10,513 bases of DNA, taken from the NCBI GenBank assembly GCA_003643935.1, contig QMLJ01000014.1, positions 1 through 10,513 of the forward strand, given 5' to 3'. The DNA comes from Deltaproteobacteria bacterium. GTDB taxonomy: Bacteria; Desulfobacterota; Desulfomonilia; UBA1062. The notes below the pieces were generated by a model. That model was not told the DNA's origin. It was given only the letters and a program-made list of their open reading frames with translations, and did no database searches. The position numbers and the translations under genes were made by a program. Within the stretch, counting starts at the first letter, position 1. Every line of letters begins with the position of its first letter. This document shows positions 1-10,343 of the stretch, piece after piece.

Positions 1-190
1 CATGGCAAAGTACTGGATATGCGAGATGTTAAACAGGCTCGTGGGCAAGTGCGTTGAGTTCCACGGCGGTTACGGATACATGGAGGAGTACCCCATAGCC
101 CGAATGTTCAGGGACGCAAGGGTTCAGACCATATATGCGGGCACTTCCGAGATCATGCTTCTGCTCATCAGTAGATCCTTGGGGCTATAA
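1..190 (+). CDS. acyl-CoA dehydrogenase, C-terminal fragment (5' end outside window)
   Basis: This is the last ~62 residues of an acyl-CoA dehydrogenase, the FAD enzyme that introduces the alpha,beta double bond into an acyl-CoA. The reading frame is open to the left edge, so the Met at position 2 is internal and the gene is truncated by the window. Visible family features are the FAD/dimer-contact motif FHGGYGYMEEYPIAR, then RDAR and the C-terminal TIYAGTSEIM motif. In medium- and short-chain enzymes the catalytic base is the Glu of YEGT. Here that position is Ala (codon 137-139), so the base must lie elsewhere, as in the isovaleryl-CoA and long-chain groups. The stop lies 4 bp before the next start, so the gene is the visible beginning of the operon. 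The family call is secure; the substrate cannot be read from this fragment. Confidence 0.93.
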   Translation, partial: MAKYWICEMLNRLVGKCVEFHGGYGYMEEYPIARMFRDARVQTIYAGTSEIMLLLISRSLGL

Positions 191-1411: not shown

Positions 1412-2869
1412 ATGATTGGCATAAAGTCTTATGGGGGATACATTCCCCGGTATCGTTTAAATCGGATGGTCATAGTTCAGAACATGGCGTGGTATCTGCC
1501 TGTTATAATGGCTGTTGCCCAAGGGGAGAAATCTGTTGCAAACTGGGACGAGGACAGTCTCAGCATGGGTGTGGCTGCTGCCTATGACTGCATGTCAGGA
1601 GGAGATAGAAAGGCCCTTGATGCCGTGTACTTTGCTTCTACGACCCTTCCCTTTGCAGACAGGCAAAATGCAAGTGTATTGGCCACAGCGCTCAACGCAC
1701 CGGAAGAGGGTGTTGATAATGCTGACTTCACAGGCTCGATCAAGGCCGGTACAACTGCAGCCATAGCGGCGATTGAGGCCATTGAGTCTGGAAGTAAAGA
1801 CAACGTACTTGTTGTGGCCTCTGACCTGAGGCGGACGAAGATGGCTACCATGTACGAGATGTTCTTGGGCGATGGTGCAGCTGCTTTGCTGTTTGGCAAG
1901 GACGATATTATTGCAGAATGCAAGGGTTATTATTCCCACAGCTGTGACTTTGTGGATCACTACAAGGGTTATGGCAAGGAGTTCGATTACACGTGGGAAG
2001 AAAGATGGGTGAGGGACGAAGGCTACGGCAAGATAATACCGGAGGCAATATCTGCGTTCCTAGGAAAGACCGGGATGCAGATAAATGACTTCGACAAGGT
2101 TATATACCCATGCTATTTCAAGGGTACACATGCAGGCATTGCAAGGAAACTCGGCCTGGATCCGTCCAAGGTCCAGGACAATATGCATGAGGTATGTGGT
2201 GACACCGGAACTGCCCACCCGCTTGTCATGTTCATAGCAGCACTTGAAGAGGCAAAACCTGGCGACAAACTCCTGCTCGCAAGCTTTGGCCAGGGCTGTG
2301 ATGTGCTCTACTTCGAGGTTACCGATAAAATAAAGGATCTTAAAGCCCCTCAGGGAATAAAGGGCTCTCTTGCCAGAAGGGTAGAACTGGATAGTTACCA
2401 GAAGTTCTGCAAGTGGCGTGACCTCATTGTTGCAGACCTAGGTATAAGGGGGGAGGCGAATCCAAATACAGCACTCACCACACTGTGGCGCAAAAGGAAG
2501 ATGCTACTCGGCCTAGTGGGTTCAAGGTGCAAGAAGTGTGGAACACCGCATTTCCCACCCTCTCAGGTCTGCATTAACCCTGACTGCGGTGCCGTAGAAG
2601 AGATGGAAGAGTACGAATTCTCCGAGAAGACCGGCAAGATACTCATGTACACAGGTGACATGCTTGCCGCATCTGTTGATCCGCCTGCGATATACGGGAT
2701 GATAAGCTTTGATGGCGGCGGAAGGACAATGCTTGATTTCACTGATTGCAAGCTGGAGCAGATAAAGGTTGGTATGGGGGTTAGGCTCTCGTTCAGAAGG
2801 AAATATAGAGATGACATGCGGGGCTTTACAGGTTACTTCTGGAAAGCAATCCCCCAGGTAGAGGAATAA
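1412..2869 (+). CDS. HMG-CoA-synthase-like (thiolase fold) protein fused to a DUF35 zinc-ribbon/OB domain
   Basis: A 485-aa two-domain protein. Residues 1 to ~330 resemble archaeal-type HMG-CoA synthase: IGIKSYGGYIPRYRL at the start, SIKAGTTA (109-116), FLGDGAAALLFG (151-162), HAGIARKLG (240-248) and LLLASFGQGCDVL (287-299). Residues ~350-485 are a DUF35 domain: a zinc ribbon with C373, C376, C387 and C392, then an OB-fold stretch (TGKILMYTGD onward). By eye alignment the three synthase catalytic positions are replaced: Glu by T77, the nucleophilic Cys by I110 (just before KAGT) and His by P233. It probably does not make HMG-CoA. In archaea a DUF35 protein bridges thiolase and HMG-CoA synthase; the thiolase gene lies directly downstream here, so a scaffold or CoA-ester-channelling role is inferred. 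No function is proven. A related clan member such as a KAS III-like enzyme remains possible. Confidence 0.85.
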   Translation: MIGIKSYGGYIPRYRLNRMVIVQNMAWYLPVIMAVAQGEKSVANWDEDSLSMGVAAAYDCMSGGDRKALDAVYFASTTLPFADRQNASVLATALNAPEEGVDNADFTGSIKAGTTAAIAAIEAIESGSKDNVLVVASDLRRTKMATMYEMFLGDGAAALLFGKDDIIAECKGYYSHSCDFVDHYKGYGKEFDYTWEERWVRDEGYGKIIPEAISAFLGKTGMQINDFDKVIYPCYFKGTHAGIARKLGLDPSKVQDNMHEVCGDTGTAHPLVMFIAALEEAKPGDKLLLASFGQGCDVLYFEVTDKIKDLKAPQGIKGSLARRVELDSYQKFCKWRDLIVADLGIRGEANPNTALTTLWRKRKMLLGLVGSRCKKCGTPHFPPSQVCINPDCGAVEEMEEYEFSEKTGKILMYTGDMLAASVDPPAIYGMISFDGGGRTMLDFTDCKLEQIKVGMGVRLSFRRKYRDDMRGFTGYFWKAIPQVEE

Positions 2870-2881: not shown

Positions 2882-4087
2882 ATGGCTACAGGAATAAAAG
2901 ATAAAGTTGCTATAATAGGAATGGGATGCACCAAGTTCGGTGAAAGATGGGACGTTGGGGCTGAAGAGCTAATGGTGGAGGCCTTCCAGGAGGCAATCCA
3001 GGATGCAGGGATAGACAAGAACGAAATACAAGCTGCTTGGCTGGGCACTTGCTTTGACGAGGTTAATGTGGGTAAGAGTGCGTTGCCTGCATCCATGACA
3101 CTCAGGCTCCCCAACATATCTGTTACAAGGGTAGAGAACTTCTGCGCGAGCGGTACAGAGGCATTCAGGGGCGCGGTATATGCAGTTGCATCGGGTGCAT
3201 ATGATATAGCCATGGCAATTGGCGTGGAAAAGCTCAAGGACATAGGTTATGGGGGGCTCCCGGAGTTCAGCTCTGCAATGGGTACCTTAAATGGTCTCTG
3301 GTTCCCTAACGTGACTGCACCCGGTTGCTTTGCAATGCTGGCAAGTGGTTACGCAGCAAAGTACGGTATTGACATGCAGGAACTAAAAAAGGCCATGGCC
3401 CACGTGTCAGCAAAAAGCCATGCAAACGGTGTACTTAACCCAAAGGCTCATCTACGCAAGGCAGTGACTGAAGAGAAGATTCTTAATGCGCCTATGATAG
3501 CCTACCCATTGGGCCTGTTTGATTGCTGCGGAGTTAGTGATGGTTCTGCATGTGCAATTGTCACCACACCTGAGATTGCAAAGAGCCTGGGCAAGAAGGA
3601 CTTCGTTACTGTTAAAGCCTTGCAGTTATCCTTGAGTAATGGCACAGAGATGGCCTACGAATGGGATGGTGCACACTTTATAACAGCAGCAAAGGCAAGT
3701 ACAGAGGCATACAAAGAGGCAGGGATAAAGAATCCCAGGGAAGAACTCAGCCTCATGGAGGTGCATGACTGTTTCTCCATCACCGAGCTGGTGACTATGG
3801 AAGACCTGCACATATCTGAAAGAGGTAAGGCCCCTAAGGACATAATGGATGGGTTCTATGACCTAGACGGGAAACTCCCGTGCCAGGTGGATGGTGGTCT
3901 AAAGTGCTTTGGGCATCCTATTGGGGCCTCTGGACTAAGAATGCTCTATGAGATTTATCTACAGCTCCACGGCAGGGCAGACAAGAGGCAGCTCAAGGAT
4001 CCTAAGCTGGGTCTTACACATAATCTCGGTGGTTTCCCGATGATGAATGTATGCAGTGTTGCTATAATCGGAAAGTACGACGTCTAG
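2882..4087 (+). CDS. SCPx-type thiolase (acetyl-CoA C-acyltransferase family)
   Basis: A 401-aa thiolase-superfamily enzyme of the sterol-carrier-protein-x / archaeal type, expected to cleave 3-ketoacyl-CoA with CoA in the cytoplasm. Seen: VAIIGMGCTKFGER (~9-22), the nucleophilic-cysteine motif NFCASGTEAF with C88, VHDCFSITE with H295 (typical of SCPx-like members), and CFGHPIGASG with H345. At the C terminus, HNLGGF (380-385) stands where classical thiolases have the second catalytic Cys (CxG); here it is Asn (N381). That substitution is characteristic of the SCPx/archaeal branch. C88 is retained, unlike the Ltp2-type retro-aldolases, so thiolysis is the more likely chemistry. The gene follows the HMGS-like/DUF35 gene with a coupled SD, which supports a physical complex. 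Confidence 0.92.
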   Translation: MATGIKDKVAIIGMGCTKFGERWDVGAEELMVEAFQEAIQDAGIDKNEIQAAWLGTCFDEVNVGKSALPASMTLRLPNISVTRVENFCASGTEAFRGAVYAVASGAYDIAMAIGVEKLKDIGYGGLPEFSSAMGTLNGLWFPNVTAPGCFAMLASGYAAKYGIDMQELKKAMAHVSAKSHANGVLNPKAHLRKAVTEEKILNAPMIAYPLGLFDCCGVSDGSACAIVTTPEIAKSLGKKDFVTVKALQLSLSNGTEMAYEWDGAHFITAAKASTEAYKEAGIKNPREELSLMEVHDCFSITELVTMEDLHISERGKAPKDIMDGFYDLDGKLPCQVDGGLKCFGHPIGASGLRMLYEIYLQLHGRADKRQLKDPKLGLTHNLGGFPMMNVCSVAIIGKYDV

Positions 4088-4568: not shown

Positions 4569-5000
4569 ATGGCGCATGAGGTATACTATGAAGATATAAA
4601 CGTAGGCGATGAGATGCCCGAGCTTGTAAAGGGGCCTTTACAGAAACTACAACACGTTATGTATGCAGGTGCATCTGGTGATTTCAACCCCCTGCACACG
4701 GACGATGACTTTGCAAAGGCGGTAGGCTTGGATGGTGTAATTGCTCACGGCATGCTTATCATGGGTTTTGTTGGCCAGGCCATAACCCAGTGGATACCAA
4801 GAAAGTATTTAAAGAAGTTTGGTGTGCGCTTTGCAGGTATGACCAAGCCTGGGAACACTATTACGGTTAAGGGTAATGTGGTGGACAAGCTAGTGGAGGG
4901 TAGTGAGAACATCATCAGGTGCGAGGTCCTTGCCCAGGATGAGAATGGGGATATCAAGGTAACAGGCCATTTTGAGGCAGCATTGCCTTTGAAAGGCTAG
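4569..5000 (+). CDS. MaoC-like (R)-specific enoyl-CoA hydratase, catalytic subunit
   Basis: A 143-aa single hot-dog-fold hydratase that adds water to trans-2-enoyl-CoA to give (3R)-hydroxyacyl-CoA. The full catalytic motif is present: SGDFNPLHTDDDFAKAVGL (37-55), with D38 and H43 as the expected dyad, followed by VIAHGML (57-63), the loop that lines the active site. Length and motif order fit PhaJ-like and hydratase-2 proteins. The gene starts 10 bp after the previous stop, with only a G-rich weak SD (AGGGGGTAGG), so it may depend on translational coupling to its partner. R-specificity matches the HSD17B4-like dehydrogenase encoded next. The acyl chain is unknown. Confidence 0.92.
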   Translation: MAHEVYYEDINVGDEMPELVKGPLQKLQHVMYAGASGDFNPLHTDDDFAKAVGLDGVIAHGMLIMGFVGQAITQWIPRKYLKKFGVRFAGMTKPGNTITVKGNVVDKLVEGSENIIRCEVLAQDENGDIKVTGHFEAALPLKG

Positions 5001-5055: not shown

Positions 5056-5961
5056 ATGTCAAAGATTGATTTCACCGGTCGGGTAGCCATAGTAACCGGC
5101 GCTGGTGCGGGCCTTGGCAGGAACCATGCCATAGAGCTCGCAAAGAGAGGGGCAAAGGTTGTTGTAAATGATCTTGGCGGTACAAGGGATGGAGTTGGGT
5201 CCAGTGAGTCTGCCGCTAACAAGGTTGTAGAGGAGATAAAGGCCCTTGGAGGTGAAGCTGTACCAAACTATGACAACGTGGCAACTGTAAAGGGCGGTGA
5301 AAATATAGTGAAAACAGCTATAGACGCCTTTGGAAAGGTGGATATACTCATAAATAATGCAGGTATACTGAGGGACAAGAGCTTTGCAAAGATGGAAGAG
5401 GAGAACTGGGATGCCGTTGTAGCTGTACACCTTAAAGGTGCATACTGCGTTACAAGGCCTGCCTTCCAAAACATGAGGGAGAACGGATACGGAAGGATCA
5501 TAATGACCACCTCTGGTGCCGGGTTGTTCGGTAACTTTGGGCAGACAAATTATGCCAGTGCCAAGATGGGGTTGGTTGGGCTTGCCAATGTGCTGAAACT
5601 GGAGGGTGCAAAGTACAACATAAAGACCAATGTGCTGGCACCTGTTGCCGCGACAAGGCTCACCGAGGACGTACTGCCTCCTGAGATATTTGAGAAGATG
5701 AAGGTAGAGTACGTCACGCCTGCTGTGCTGTACATGTGTTCAGAGTTGTGCGAGGACTCAGGTGTTATTATAAATGCAGGTTTGGGTTATTTCAGTAGGT
5801 CAGCAATGATGACAGGTCCTGGTGCGGTTCTATCTGATGGGAAGAAGGTACCTACACCCGAAGAAGTCATGGATAACTGGGAGAAGATTACAAGCCTGGA
5901 CAACCCAAAGTTTTTCAACCAGCTAAACGATATGTTTGGAGAACTTGGCTCATTGTTGTGA
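5056..5961 (+). CDS. SDR-family 3-hydroxyacyl-CoA dehydrogenase, HSD17B4/MFE-2-like
   Basis: A 301-aa NAD-dependent short-chain dehydrogenase most like the dehydrogenase domain of peroxisomal multifunctional enzyme 2. It would oxidise (3R)-hydroxyacyl-CoA to 3-ketoacyl-CoA. Seen: Rossmann motif TGAGAGLG (14-21), an acidic D39 after beta2 in VVVNDLGG that favours NAD over NADP, NNAG (100-103), and the catalytic S153, Y166 and K170 (YASAK). The VNDLGGTRDG stretch and the ~60-residue tail after the SDR core are features of the HSD17B4 group; classical SDRs are ~250 aa. AGGAGGG at 5043-5049 supports ATG 5056. The order hydratase then dehydrogenase gives as separate genes what eukaryotic MFE-2 carries as one fusion. 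This is the last gene of the operon, followed by a hairpin. Confidence 0.92.
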   Translation: MSKIDFTGRVAIVTGAGAGLGRNHAIELAKRGAKVVVNDLGGTRDGVGSSESAANKVVEEIKALGGEAVPNYDNVATVKGGENIVKTAIDAFGKVDILINNAGILRDKSFAKMEEENWDAVVAVHLKGAYCVTRPAFQNMRENGYGRIIMTTSGAGLFGNFGQTNYASAKMGLVGLANVLKLEGAKYNIKTNVLAPVAATRLTEDVLPPEIFEKMKVEYVTPAVLYMCSELCEDSGVIINAGLGYFSRSAMMTGPGAVLSDGKKVPTPEEVMDNWEKITSLDNPKFFNQLNDMFGELGSLL

Positions 5962-5976
5962 TGGGCATAAGACAAT

Positions 5977-6008
5977 GGTCTTGGGGGGATCTATATCTCT
6001 CCAAGACC
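5977..6008. terminator. candidate bidirectional hairpin between convergent genes
   Basis: GGTCTTGG (5977-5984) pairs with CCAAGACC (6001-6008). The stem extends inward to 14 bp with two G-U pairs in the + strand RNA and a 4-nt loop (CTAT). It lies between the dehydrogenase stop (5961) and the convergent phosphoesterase, and overlaps the last codons of the latter. No U-tract follows on either strand, so it may act as a 3'-end stabiliser or a non-canonical terminator. Confidence 0.5.
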
Positions 6009-6611
6009 TATAAATCTCACCCTGTTTTGCTCGAGCATAAAAAGGGCACAGGATCCGTCTTCCACTGCTCCGACCGTTACTATGTATCTTTTGTCAGGAT
6101 TAAGGATTACTTCCTCACCTGGTCTTACCTTTATTCCTTTAGATACATCGCCATTAATCTCAAGGATTGAAGGTGTGTGTGAATGCCCCCTGAAAAGTAT
6201 TCTGAAAGTGGGTATGTTGTCCTTGATGATGTATGGAAGGTATTCTTCTATAGGCCTTTTTGTTGCGGCTGGCCAGTTAAAAGGCGCCGAATGTGTAAAG
6301 ATTATATCACCCATTGTAATGACATAGGGTAGTGCCTCTATGTATTTTATAGCCCTTAACCTTTGACTATCATTATGGTCTCCGTTTATACCCGATATAA
6401 GGCTGAGCTCGTTATTTCCCATTAAGGACTTTACATTATATCTTTCCAGAATAGAGATGGCCTCCTCAATTTCAACAGGCCTTAATGAATCACATATGTC
6501 CCCAAGATGTATGATAGTCTCAGCACCAAGTACTTTTAGTTTCTTTATTGCGTCTAGCATGTTTCTGTTATTGCTGTGACTGTCAGCAATCAATCCTATA
6601 ATGCCTTTCAT
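5991..6611 (-). CDS. calcineurin-like metallophosphoesterase, YfcE/MJ0936 family
   Basis: A 206-aa cytoplasmic metal-dependent phosphoesterase, somewhat longer than the ~160-185 aa usual for this family. All metal-site motifs are seen: ADSH (D10, H12), HLGDIC (D38), GNNE (N66; usually GNHD or GNCD), THS (H107) and GHSH (H143, H145). Family members hydrolyse phosphodiesters or phosphomonoesters in vitro; the natural substrate is not predictable here. The gene is transcribed against both neighbouring blocks, and nothing links it to acyl-CoA metabolism. The start has no convincing SD (CCTTTCACCT precedes ATG), so leaderless or weak initiation is possible. The N terminus MKGIIGLIADSH is nevertheless right for the family. 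Confidence 0.9.
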   Translation of the reverse strand: MKGIIGLIADSHSNNRNMLDAIKKLKVLGAETIIHLGDICDSLRPVEIEEAISILERYNVKSLMGNNELSLISGINGDHNDSQRLRAIKYIEALPYVITMGDIIFTHSAPFNWPAATKRPIEEYLPYIIKDNIPTFRILFRGHSHTPSILEINGDVSKGIKVRPGEEVILNPDKRYIVTVGAVEDGSCALFMLEQNRVRFIGLGEI

Positions 6612-6771: not shown

Positions 6772-8280
6772 ATGGCTTCTAAATACGATGTAGTAGTCAT
6801 AGGTGCCGGTAATGCAGGGCTTGCTGCCGCACTGAGTCTAGCCAAGAAAGGCAGGGAAGTGCTCTTGCTGGAAAGACACAATGTACCAGGTGGTTGCGCA
6901 ACAAGTTTTGTAAGGGGAAGGTTTGAATTCGAGGTGGCCCTACACCAGTTGAGTGGCATGGGTACGGATGACAGGCCAGGCCCTTTAAGGGAACTTCTAC
7001 GGGAGCTTGGAGTACTTGATAAACTCGAATTTGTCCAGATGAAAGACCTTTACCGTATCATAATGCCGGGTGTGGCAGATATCAGGCTAAAGGCCCTTAA
7101 GGATGAAGTTGTATCAACTCTGAAAGAGAACTTTCCAAAGGAGAAGGACTCCATAGATAGCTTTTTCGACCTTGTTTATGAATTCTGCATGCAGATGATA
7201 GGTGGTGTTTACATGCATGACCCCGAGATATCGAGGGATAAATATCCGTTGTATTTCAAGTATGCCTTAAAGAGCTCCAAAGAAGTATTGGATCATTACT
7301 TTGATGATCCTGTACTAAAAGCTGTTATAAGTCCTTACTGGTCTTATATGGGCATCCCTCCGAAGTACCTCTCGTTTAGCGACCTTGCGATACTTATCTT
7401 TGCTTATATTGAATTCAAGCCTTTTCATATTAAGGGAGGTTCGCAGGCGTTATCAAATGCACTGCTTGATACCTTTATCCAGCACGGTGGTACAGCAAGG
7501 CTTAATACTCCGGTAGAGAAAATCATTATCAAAGATGGTAGGGCTAGTGGTGTTGTGACTGGACATGGAGAACAGATATTCTCCGATTACGTAATATCCA
7601 ATGCAAGCACAATATCCACTTATTATGAACTGCTTGGCCCGGAGTATGTTCTGGAAGAGGTGAAGATAGAACTCGGCAGGAGTACGATTGGGCCTTCTGC
7701 CTTTACCTTGTTTCTTGGCCTTGACTGTGAGCCCAATGACTTGGGTATTGAAGAAACCACTAACTTCATCGGGACTAGTCTTGACATGGAGAGGACTTAT
7801 GAACTGAGCAAGACATTGGGGAGGCCTGAGATGGGTCTTTTGTCATGCTACGATGTATCTGACCCTGATTTCTCGCCCAAAGGGGCATCTCAAGCCGCAT
7901 TTGTCACACTCCAGTATGCCGAGGCATGGTGCAATATCGGTCCCACGGAGTATTATGACACAAAGTACAGGTATGCAGAATCCATGCTTGACCTTGTGGA
8001 GAGGGCTTTCCCTGGTATCAGGGGGCACCTGGAAGAGGTTGAAGCGGCAACGCCTCTTACACACCTGCGCTACCTTGGCCATCCAGGTGGAGCCATATAT
8101 GGGTTTGACCAGTATGCAAAGGATTTGAACCTGTTTATGAGCAGGAGGTCTCCGGTGGACGGACTATTTCTTGCCGGGTCATGGGTTGATTCCGGTGGTT
8201 TTCAGCCGACACTCACTTCTGGTAGGCAGGCAGCAAAGGCCGTGCTCAAGGACATGGAAAACAAGGGGGTGAAAAGATGA
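6772..8280 (+). CDS. FAD-dependent oxidoreductase, phytoene desaturase / retinol saturase-like
   Basis: A 502-aa flavoprotein of the CrtI / carotenoid isomerase / retinol saturase superfamily. Seen: the N-terminal dinucleotide fold VVVIGAGNAGLAAALSLA with GxGxxG at 11-16, E34 at the end of beta2 (LLLER) to bind the FAD ribose, the VPGG motif (38-41), and the C-terminal FAD closure FLAGSWVDSGGFQPTL (466-481). The middle third is variable and has no further motif I recognise. Family members desaturate, isomerise or saturate isoprenoid polyenes and related lipids. No carotenoid synthesis genes (crtB, crtE) are nearby, and the gene is coupled to a ferredoxin-reductase-like gene. An electron-accepting reductive role on an unsaturated lipid or acyl-CoA is therefore plausible but inferred. 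GGAGGGGG at 6761-6768 sets the start. Confidence 0.82.
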   Translation: MASKYDVVVIGAGNAGLAAALSLAKKGREVLLLERHNVPGGCATSFVRGRFEFEVALHQLSGMGTDDRPGPLRELLRELGVLDKLEFVQMKDLYRIIMPGVADIRLKALKDEVVSTLKENFPKEKDSIDSFFDLVYEFCMQMIGGVYMHDPEISRDKYPLYFKYALKSSKEVLDHYFDDPVLKAVISPYWSYMGIPPKYLSFSDLAILIFAYIEFKPFHIKGGSQALSNALLDTFIQHGGTARLNTPVEKIIIKDGRASGVVTGHGEQIFSDYVISNASTISTYYELLGPEYVLEEVKIELGRSTIGPSAFTLFLGLDCEPNDLGIEETTNFIGTSLDMERTYELSKTLGRPEMGLLSCYDVSDPDFSPKGASQAAFVTLQYAEAWCNIGPTEYYDTKYRYAESMLDLVERAFPGIRGHLEEVEAATPLTHLRYLGHPGGAIYGFDQYAKDLNLFMSRRSPVDGLFLAGSWVDSGGFQPTLTSGRQAAKAVLKDMENKGVKR

Positions 8281-9437
8281 GTTCAATGGACTTTGTGAAG
8301 GATATGGATGGCTACAAAGAGATAGAGAACGATATAAAGGTATTAAGAAAGTATGCCCGCGACTATAGTGCCATGAGAGGTAATGTAAAAAGTATAATAG
8401 ACATGTTGCATCCATATAGACTCCATCTTAGGGTCTCTGAGATAAGGGAGGAGACACCCTCCACCAAGACATTAAGACTGGTTTCTGTTAATAATTATCT
8501 GCCCCCTTTCCAGGCAGGACAATACATCAATGTCTTCGTGGATATCACAGGGGTGAGGACGAGCAGGCCATACAGCATATCTTCCTCTCCAGCCCAGAGG
8601 GGTTACTACGATATAACGGTAAGAAAGGTGGAGGACGGCTTTGTATCAAATTACCTCTTGGAAGAAGTCAAGGTAGGCCAGGTACTGGAGAGTACGGCAC
8701 CGGCCGGGAATTTCTACTACAACCCGCTTTTCCACGGTAATGACCTGGTATTCCTTGCAGGAGGTAGCGGTATAACGCCGTTTATGAGCATGATAAGGGA
8801 GGTTACAGACAGGGATATAGATAGAAAGATACACCTTGTATATGGAAGCCAATTTGAGGACGATGTGATCTTTCAGGATGAACTGGAAGACAGGTCACGT
8901 AGACACGAAAATTTCAGTTACAACCTGGTGTTATCCAGTCCGCCGGATGGTTACAAAGGTCTTAAGGGTTTCATTACAGAAGGATTATTGAAACAAGTCC
9001 TTGGTGATATCAAGAACAAGATGTTCTACATATGCGGGCCAAAGCCCATGTACACATTTTGCATGGCAGAACTTGAGAAACTGGGCATAGAGGCAAGAAA
9101 GATTCGTTTAGAGATATCCGGCCCACCCAAGGACATAACAGCAGAGCCAGGCTGGCCCCGGGGTCTGGATGCCTCTACCGTTTTCAAGGTGAAGATAAGA
9201 AATGGTAAGACCATCAATGCTAAGGCAGGGGAGCCACTTATGGTATCTCTTGAAAGGGCCGGTATAGTTGTTGAGGCCATGTGCCGCTCAGGTGAATGCA
9301 GCATGTGCAGGACAAAACTCTTAGATGGCAAGGTCTTTCATCCTCAGGCGGTAAAACTGAGGAAGTCAGACAGAGATTTCGGCTACATACATCCATGCGT
9401 TGCTTACCCTATCCAGGATCTGGAAATTATGTTATAG
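8277..9437 (+). CDS. NAD(P)H:acceptor reductase with FAD, NAD and C-terminal plant-type 2Fe-2S domains
   Basis: A 386-aa electron-transfer protein. The order is an N-terminal helical, charged extension (1 to ~45), an FAD-binding barrel with RPYSISSSP (97-105), an NAD-binding domain with LAGGSGITPFMSM (160-172) and CGPKPM (253-258), then a 2Fe-2S ferredoxin domain (~302-386). The cluster ligands are C336, C341 and C344 (CX4CX2C) and C374. This is the class IA/CDP-glucoseen-reductase-like layout seen in reductases that pass electrons from NAD(P)H to a partner. No oxygenase gene is adjacent. The start overlaps the preceding stop as ATGA (8277-8280), so the flavoprotein is its most likely partner. 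The extra N-terminal segment is not part of the standard reductase core and could mediate docking. The physiological direction of electron flow is not known. Confidence 0.9.
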   Translation: MSSMDFVKDMDGYKEIENDIKVLRKYARDYSAMRGNVKSIIDMLHPYRLHLRVSEIREETPSTKTLRLVSVNNYLPPFQAGQYINVFVDITGVRTSRPYSISSSPAQRGYYDITVRKVEDGFVSNYLLEEVKVGQVLESTAPAGNFYYNPLFHGNDLVFLAGGSGITPFMSMIREVTDRDIDRKIHLVYGSQFEDDVIFQDELEDRSRRHENFSYNLVLSSPPDGYKGLKGFITEGLLKQVLGDIKNKMFYICGPKPMYTFCMAELEKLGIEARKIRLEISGPPKDITAEPGWPRGLDASTVFKVKIRNGKTINAKAGEPLMVSLERAGIVVEAMCRSGECSMCRTKLLDGKVFHPQAVKLRKSDRDFGYIHPCVAYPIQDLEIML

Positions 9438-9686: not shown

Positions 9687-10343
9687 ATGAAAAAGATATA
9701 CTTGGCTATTATGATCGTTGCTGTCTTTGTTTTTCTAGTGGCTACAGAGATACACGAGCCATTAATGCAGATTACAATGAAGGCTATCACGGGGAAGAAC
9801 ACTGGTGTGACTACCTCGGTAGGTACTATAGATGAGAACTCACCAAAGGTAGACCTTGATATGCTTCTCAGGCCCAGCGACCTCTCTGATGCCTATGTAG
9901 ATAATTATGCAACGGCATATGGTATGTATTATTCTCCAGCAGTAGATATGGAGGGAACCGGGCAGGGTTATTATGGCATAACAGGACCTGGCCTTGGAAT
10001 TATATCAGACATGCCTAATAGCGGTCCTGTCTATGGCAGTCAACCTCCGGGATCCACCGGTGGTGTATTCCCGGGCAGGGCTCCGGACCTGTTACATGTT
10101 GCTGATCTTTCGTCTGCGCCTAGCCTCTCAGGTGGAGTTATCGGAGGCGCGATTGGAGTTGGTACGAATCCAGAAGAGAACACCGGAGGAGGGACATCAG
10201 GTGATGGTAACATCGGTGAACCAAGCACGTCCCCCGAGACACCACCTGCACCAGTACCTGAGCCTTCTACTATTCTCCTTGTTGCAACAGGCTTGGTAGG
10301 TCTTTTACCGTTTACCAGGAGGCATCGATTATCTCGCAGGTAA
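9687..10343 (+). CDS. PEP-CTERM sorting-signal exported protein
   Basis: A 218-aa surface or exopolysaccharide-associated protein. Residues 1-20 (MKKIYLAIMIVAVFVFLVAT) form a signal peptide. The C terminus has the tripartite PEP-CTERM signal: VPEPST (190-195), a hydrophobic helix (ILLVATGLVGLLPF, ~196-209) and a basic tail RRHRLSRR. Exosortase is known to cut at this signal and move the protein to the cell surface. The mature part has no domain I recognise. It is Gly-, Pro- and Ser/Thr-rich from about residue 88, with a low-complexity GGGTSGDGNIGEPSTSPETPP-like linker before the signal, and has no cysteines. It stands alone behind a sigma-54-type promoter; no exosortase gene is in the window. 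The last 32 bp overlap the end of the opposing moeA-like gene. Confidence 0.9.
   Translation: MKKIYLAIMIVAVFVFLVATEIHEPLMQITMKAITGKNTGVTTSVGTIDENSPKVDLDMLLRPSDLSDAYVDNYATAYGMYYSPAVDMEGTGQGYYGITGPGLGIISDMPNSGPVYGSQPPGSTGGVFPGRAPDLLHVADLSSAPSLSGGVIGGAIGVGTNPEENTGGGTSGDGNIGEPSTSPETPPAPVPEPSTILLVATGLVGLLPFTRRHRLSRR

What the first reader, a model, noticed from the sequence alone, without database searches (positions are those of the whole stretch)
1412..2869. HMG-CoA-synthase-like domain with all three catalytic positions apparently replaced, fused to DUF35
Aligned by eye to archaeal HMG-CoA synthase, the catalytic Glu, Cys and His positions carry T77, I110 and P233, yet the fold motifs are intact. 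A DUF35 zinc-ribbon/OB domain is fused in the same chain and the thiolase gene is next door. In the archaeal thiolase/HMGS/DUF35 complex the DUF35 protein forms a shared CoA-binding site. Here an inactive synthase half may have become a structural or CoA-ester-channelling subunit for the thiolase, or may do a different reaction.
Basis: partly seen in the sequence, partly recalled or inferred. Interest (0 to 1): 0.72.

Follow-up and report, generated by a model that had tools for sequence, protein, structure and literature searches.

The report
Dead HMG-CoA-synthase fused to thiolase scaffold
The protein looks like an HMG-CoA synthase that has lost its catalytic residues and become a fixed, probably non-catalytic partner of the thiolase next to it; this type of partnership is already known from a few other bacterial and archaeal complexes, but here the two accessory parts are one protein in a fatty-acid-breakdown operon.

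Summary
The ORF at 1412-2869 (485 aa) is an HMGS-like domain fused to a DUF35 zinc-ribbon/OB domain. The positions of the HMGS catalytic Glu, Cys and His carry T77, I110 and P233. This is a family trait: none of 231 aligned family rows (window included) has any of the three in place, while 120 of 120 HMGS controls close to 6ESQ have all three. The thiolase next door keeps its catalytic residues and is a near-obligate partner: 56 of 60 family hits in 60 related genomes have it downstream on the same strand; the other four appear to lie at contig ends. Added here: PhlA-like and PhlB-like parts are one chain, serving a thiolase in an MFE-2-type beta-oxidation operon; in 51 of 81 family members from named loci the chain continues into an SDR, the enzyme that would feed the thiolase. 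Most likely a docking/CoA-site subunit of a degradative thiolase complex. Complex formation and substrate are untested. New variant of a known kind; moderate interest.

The parts
1412..2341 (+). HMGS-like (pseudo-synthase) domain of the fusion protein, residues 1-310; catalytic positions T77, I110, P233
2507..2869 (+). DUF35 module of the same chain (zinc ribbon C373/C376/C387/C392 plus OB fold), residues 366-485
2882..4087 (+). thiolase (SCP2/DUF35-partner type) with C88, H295-D-C297 and GH345P; NCBIfam PRK06157 above cut-off (695/403 bits)
2..190 (+). C-terminal 62 residues of an acyl-CoA dehydrogenase (gene cut by the contig start)
195..1385 (+). family III CoA-transferase (ORF listed from 135; the ATG at 195 is the likelier start because the preceding gene ends at 190); the only match to this family found in this incomplete genome
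4109..4558 (+). HadA-like hot-dog protein, probably the non-catalytic hydratase partner (GDPNPIY: Tyr at the His position)
4569..5000 (+). MaoC/HadB-like hydratase with intact hydratase-2 motif (YAGASGDFNPLH)
5056..5961 (+). SDR of the peroxisomal MFE-2 (3R)-hydroxyacyl-CoA dehydrogenase type; homologous to the SDR fused to the pseudo-synthase in other members

Best explanation
The fusion protein is the non-catalytic accessory subunit of a thiolase complex. Its HMGS-like half has lost the Cys/Glu/His machinery and serves as a structural half that packs, through the DUF35 zinc-ribbon/OB module of the same chain, onto the thiolase encoded 12 bases downstream, probably completing the acyl-CoA/CoA site as DUF35 and HMGS do in the archaeal complex. 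The thiolase does the chemistry: CoA-dependent cleavage of a 3-oxoacyl-CoA with C88 as nucleophile and C297/H345 as acid-base. It is the last step of an (R)-specific, MFE-2-type beta-oxidation sequence encoded in the same operon: acyl-CoA dehydrogenase, inert/active hot-dog hydratase pair, SDR dehydrogenase, thiolase, with a family III CoA-transferase for activation. Shown: residue loss, family-wide conservation, thiolase pairing, domain fusions, intact catalytic residues in the thiolase and the MaoC hydratase. Inferred: the physical complex, the shared CoA site, the catalytic roles of the thiolase residues (from family knowledge), the direction and the substrate (long, bulky or branched).
For: Triad absent in all 231 family rows against 120 of 120 controls intact. 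Closest structures are the HMGS-like subunits of thiolase/DUF35 complexes: 6ET9/6ESQ, CsATase 9SKH, PhlABC 5M3K, MucABC 9VBO. The thiolase matches 6ESQ chain A and BbsB (7PXP), both described with DUF35 partners in PMC12329534 (passages). In 80 named loci, 68 of 81 family members have the thiolase next (gaps 3-310 bases), 11 end with the contig, and 2 show none; of these 2, L068 carries the start of a thiolase at its contig end and L035 contains 500 N. In 60 relatives, 56 of 60 family hits and 56 of 58 thiolase hits are paired. Thiolase catalytic residues: C88 in 69 of 69 (window included), C297 and H345 in 64 of 64 rows with letters. Operon logic. SDR fused to the C-terminus in 51 of 81. Precedent for a catalytically silent HMGS-like subunit: PMC6392133 (passages).
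Against: No interaction data; the attempted joint model of fusion plus thiolase did not finish. 11 of 17 unfused family members with at least 4 kb downstream have the thiolase but no neighbour that passed my identity limits for the window's MaoC or SDR, so the pathway assignment does not hold for the whole family. The strong conservation of new residues in the dead half (C234, H269, the DYxWEERW stretch) is more than a plain scaffold needs. PhlABC and the archaeal complex run in the acylating or condensing direction.
Confidence: 0.7

Rival explanations
1. The HMGS-like half has kept or regained a chemical or acyl-binding role in a remodelled pocket. C234, one residue after the old catalytic His position, with H269 and the acid at 264 (the old Asn position), would form a new nucleophile/base or metal site, for example to park the acyl group between the dehydrogenase and the thiolase.
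For: C234 and H269 are invariant in 201 of 201 close family rows, where the HMGS controls have Q and A; position 264 is D or E in 200 of 201, N in the controls. 25 N-domain positions are conserved in at least 98.5% of the 201 rows but differ from the HMGS control majority.
Against: More distant relatives mostly lack them: C234 in 9 of 30, H269 in 6 of 30; several rows without them (L093, L100, L107) still have a thiolase next door (their hits). No coordinates were available, so nearness of C234 and H269 was not tested. Conserved residues may be contact surface.
Confidence: 0.12
2. The complex works in the synthetic direction, as a C-acyltransferase or Claisen condensing enzyme like PhlACB, MucABC or the archaeal acetoacetyl-CoA thiolase, making a secondary metabolite or lipid.
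For: Nearest structural relatives of the HMGS-like half are such complexes. The two hot-dog proteins are nearest to HadA/HadB-type dehydratases among the solved structures, which serve synthesis (recalled).
Against: Neighbours form a beta-oxidation set: acyl-CoA dehydrogenase C-terminus, hydratase pair, SDR of the peroxisomal MFE-2 type, CoA-transferase. In D. alkanivorans the neighbours include acyl-CoA dehydrogenases and an AMP-forming ligase.
Confidence: 0.13
3. The fusion is a decaying or incidental neighbour without a role for the thiolase.
For: It lacks catalytic residues.
Against: 54-79% identity over loci titled as several phyla, zinc ligands and 47 N-domain positions nearly invariant, near-obligate gene pairing.
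Confidence: 0.03

Closest known systems
PhlA/PhlB/PhlC acyltransferase (PpATase 5M3K, CsATase 9SKH) and MucABC (9VBO)
   Different: separate subunits; PpATase does CoA-independent Friedel-Crafts acyl transfer (PMC6392133); here subunits A and B are one chain and the operon looks degradative
[quoted passage not shown]
   Different: its HMGS has Cys114 and Glu82 (as told in PMC6392133); separate subunits; mevalonate pathway
Benzoylsuccinyl-CoA thiolase BbsAB (7PXP)
   Same: DUF35 plus thiolase at the end of an anaerobic beta-oxidation pathway; thiolase match 155 bits
   Different: no HMGS-like half is part of it (recalled); the window thiolase is far below the BbsB model cut-off (159/750)
Ltp2-ChsH1/ChsH2 and Sal-Shy steroid hydratase/aldolase complexes
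   Same: DUF35 joins the enzyme of the preceding step to a thiolase-fold enzyme (PMC11321319 and PMC12329534, passages)
   Different: retro-aldol chemistry; the partner is a hydratase, not a pseudo-HMGS with or without SDR

Membership tests
HMG-CoA synthase (enzyme) | catalytic Glu, Cys and His | tested here: not met
   T77, I110, P233; none of 231 family rows, 120 of 120 controls
HMG-CoA synthase (enzyme) | score above the curated NCBIfam cut-offs | tested here: not met
   188/244, 133/353 and 44/360 bits
HMG-CoA synthase (enzyme) | HMGS fold | tested here: met
Three-component HMGS-like/DUF35/thiolase complexes (PhlABC type) | HMGS-like, DUF35 and thiolase encoded together | tested here: met
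Three-component HMGS-like/DUF35/thiolase complexes (PhlABC type) | HMGS-like subunit without Cys/Glu, catalytic Cys in the thiolase | tested here: met
   PhlA per PMC6392133
Three-component HMGS-like/DUF35/thiolase complexes (PhlABC type) | stable hetero-oligomer | not testable with these tools
   no binding assay; a joint model was tried and did not finish
Three-component HMGS-like/DUF35/thiolase complexes (PhlABC type) | separate A and B subunits | tested here: not met
   one chain of 485 aa
DUF35 (zf-ChsH2/OB_ChsH2_C) | four-Cys zinc ribbon followed by OB fold | tested here: met
   four residues lie between the third and fourth Cys instead of the two given as canonical in PMC12329534
BbsB benzoylsuccinyl-CoA thiolase | score above NF053628 cut-off | tested here: not met
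   159/750 bits
MFE-2-type beta-oxidation | SDR (3R)-hydroxyacyl-CoA dehydrogenase and hydratase-2 motif | tested here: met
   SDR to 2ET6/1GZ6; YAGASGDFNPLH, motif recalled

The most novel reading that the evidence does not exclude
The pseudo-HMGS half is the chassis of an unrecognised beta-oxidation multienzyme: in many Desulfobacterota it carries the 3-hydroxyacyl-CoA dehydrogenase (and, in the one examined, an SCP2 domain) on its C-terminus and docks the thiolase through DUF35, so that the 3-oxoacyl-CoA passes directly from SDR to thiolase, with the remodelled dead pocket (C234/H269) holding or relaying the acyl group.
Probability: 0.2. Interest if true: 0.7.

Novelty: new variant of a known kind. 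Interest (0 to 1): 0.42.

Why it matters
If the complex is real, inactivated HMGS-like subunits are not a peculiarity of a few acyltransferase pathways but a widespread part of anaerobic acyl-CoA degradation, and proteins that several sources name HMG-CoA synthase (names) are wrongly named. It would also give a testable model of a dehydrogenase-thiolase complex built on a dead enzyme, and would bear on whether DUF35 complexes channel substrates, which PMC12329534 names as a question for the future (passage).

Tried and rejected
Considered and rejected: (1) misaligned catalytic residues; controls read E/C/H 120 of 120 in the same columns. (2) A one-off loss in this genome; the loss is family-wide. 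(3) Fumarate-addition pathway: the own genome has four glycyl-radical enzyme matches; of the two ORFs scanned against NCBIfam neither reaches a cut-off, and the one compared with solved structures is not nearest to benzylsuccinate or alkylsuccinate synthases, though these are among its weaker matches; so no substrate could be read from them. (4) BbsAB orthology: below cut-off. (5) Tree of the HMGS-like half (56 rows): archaeal HMGS (8 rows), PhlA with 9VBO, and the family come out as separate groups, but the tree is unrooted and 9VBO and other rows are long, so whether PhlA and this family lost the triad once or separately stays open. (6) Literature: searches listed no paper whose title or shown abstract treats this fused family (one search found none at all); passages were read in PMC6392133, PMC12329534, PMC11321319, PMC10398937, PMC2954200, PMC12955522 and PMC6996347. 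PMC2954200 mentions DUF35 fusions to thiolase, SDR, SCP2 and hot-dog domains in general. The archaeal complex paper and the presumed BbsAB paper (identifier recalled) were not held and are cited only through other papers or from recall. (7) Positions of C60, C234, H240, H259 and H269 relative to each other could not be measured, as no coordinates are given out.

Full report
The observation. The ORF at 1412-2869 encodes 485 aa with an HMGS/KAS III-like domain, a zf-ChsH2 zinc ribbon and an OB_ChsH2_C domain. HMGS models of NCBIfam cover residues 1-340 but stay below their cut-offs. As a control I aligned the 120 listed hits of the 6ESQ chain (73-100% identity): all 120 read E/C/H in these columns, while none of 231 family rows has E, C or H in its respective column. 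These controls are close to 6ESQ, so they show that the columns are read correctly, not how widely HMGS keeps the triad. Two of the 30 are not fused (L090, L099). Only 120 of 4105 protein hits, 80 of at least 586 loci and 30 of the phylum matches were examined, so a fused member with an intact triad is not excluded.

The partner. The thiolase at 2882-4087 begins 12 bases after the fusion's stop codon. It belongs to NCBIfam PRK06157 (695 bits, cut-off 403) and resembles 7YVY, the thiolase of 6ESQ and BbsB. C88 is kept in 69 of 69 aligned thiolases (window included), C297 and H345 in 64 of 64 with letters there. In 80 named loci, 68 of 81 family members have this thiolase next, 11 end with the contig and 2 show none; one of the 2 (L068) carries the start of a thiolase at its contig end, the other (L035) contains 500 N and no thiolase was found in it. 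In the 60 genomes of the relatives search (the own genome is in its table), 39 have the fusion at E <= 1e-60 (60 hits) and 38 the thiolase at E <= 1e-80 (58 hits); 56 of 60 and 56 of 58 pair on the same strand, 46 with gaps of 10-207 bases and 10 with gaps of 1298-1596 bases, the room of a further domain. The 4 and 2 unpaired hits appear to lie at contig ends, judged from their coordinates or cut length; contig lengths were not looked up.

The operon. The window holds the C-terminus of an acyl-CoA dehydrogenase, a family III CoA-transferase, the fusion, the thiolase, a HadA-like and a MaoC-like hot-dog protein and an SDR. The SDR is closest to peroxisomal (3R)-hydroxyacyl-CoA dehydrogenases. 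The MaoC protein has the hydratase-2 motif; the HadA-like one has Tyr at the His position. In related loci His is present in 12 of 12 MaoC and in 0 of the 12 HadA-like proteins in which the motif was found, of 14. Such inert/active pairs are known for bulky steroid substrates (PMC11321319, passages); but the nearest solved structures are HadA/HadB-type dehydratases and MaoC-like dehydratases, so a long chain is as possible as a bulky one.

Domain fusions. In 51 of 81 family members the chain continues into an SDR 59-74% identical to the window's own over the matched part. In Desulfosarcina alkanivorans (L031 8995-11727, 911 aa) an SCP2 domain follows; SCP2 was tested only there. In 35 of 35 such loci with at least 2.5 kb upstream another SDR-containing ORF lies upstream; in L031 it is a hydratase-SDR-SCP2 protein. 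Of 17 unfused members with at least 4 kb downstream, 6 have the window's order thiolase-HadA-like-MaoC-SDR and 11 have the thiolase without neighbours that passed my identity limits for MaoC (40%) or SDR (45%); weaker SDR matches of 25-35% occur in some of these. So the tie to the thiolase is general, the tie to SDR and hydratase is common but not universal.

How it probably works. In PhlABC the HMGS-like subunit lacks Cys and Glu, only PhlC residues take part in acyl transfer, and a functional enzyme is obtained only when all three are expressed together (PMC6392133, passages). In the archaeal complex CoA binds at an interface of all three proteins (same passages). By homology I take the fusion as the A plus B part of such a complex, fused, and the thiolase as the catalytic part. 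The neighbours point to degradation. The complex and the shared CoA site are inferred, not shown.

What does not fit a plain scaffold. In 201 close rows 25 N-domain positions are conserved in at least 98.5% but differ from the HMGS control majority, among them C60, C234, H269 and several of the DYxWEERW stretch. C234 and H269 lie, in sequence, near the former catalytic His and the Asn of HMGS. In 30 more distant rows they are mostly absent (C234 in 9, H269 in 6 of 30).

Novelty. Inactive HMGS-like subunits (PhlA), DUF35-thiolase pairs (BbsAB) and DUF35 fusions in general (PMC2954200, passages) are in print. I found no paper on this fused family in searches of an open-access library, which lacks most subscription journals. 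I rate it a new variant of a known kind.

Noticed in passing
L031 6871-8973 and 8995-11727: Desulfosarcina alkanivorans encodes two consecutive multidomain proteins, hydratase-SDR-SCP2 and pseudo-HMGS-DUF35-SDR-SCP2, followed by the thiolase.
   Followed up: partly
window 6772-8280 and 8277-9437: A CrtI-like FAD oxidoreductase and an overlapping ferredoxin-reductase-like protein recur with the same operon in L011, L014 and L021.
   Followed up: no
window 5991-6611 (-): YfcE-like metallophosphoesterase on the opposite strand; an ORF of similar size and look lies in the same place in L011 (the L011 ORF was not scanned).
   Followed up: no
window 9687-10343: Protein with a C-terminal PEP-CTERM sorting signal after a stretch without a long ORF.
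   Followed up: no
L018 6379-8178; L016 7422-8864: Other family pairs have other neighbours: a succinate dehydrogenase/fumarate reductase-type flavoprotein before the pair in L018, an HpaB-like hydroxylase in L016.
   Followed up: no
L113, L114, L115, L116: The own genome has four glycyl-radical enzyme matches; the 839-aa one in L114 reaches no NCBIfam cut-off.
   Followed up: partly
L083-L086: Genomes of one family of the phylum (f40) have 488-490 aa fusions that score nearer to HMGS (up to 309 of 353 bits) and still lack the triad.
   Followed up: partly
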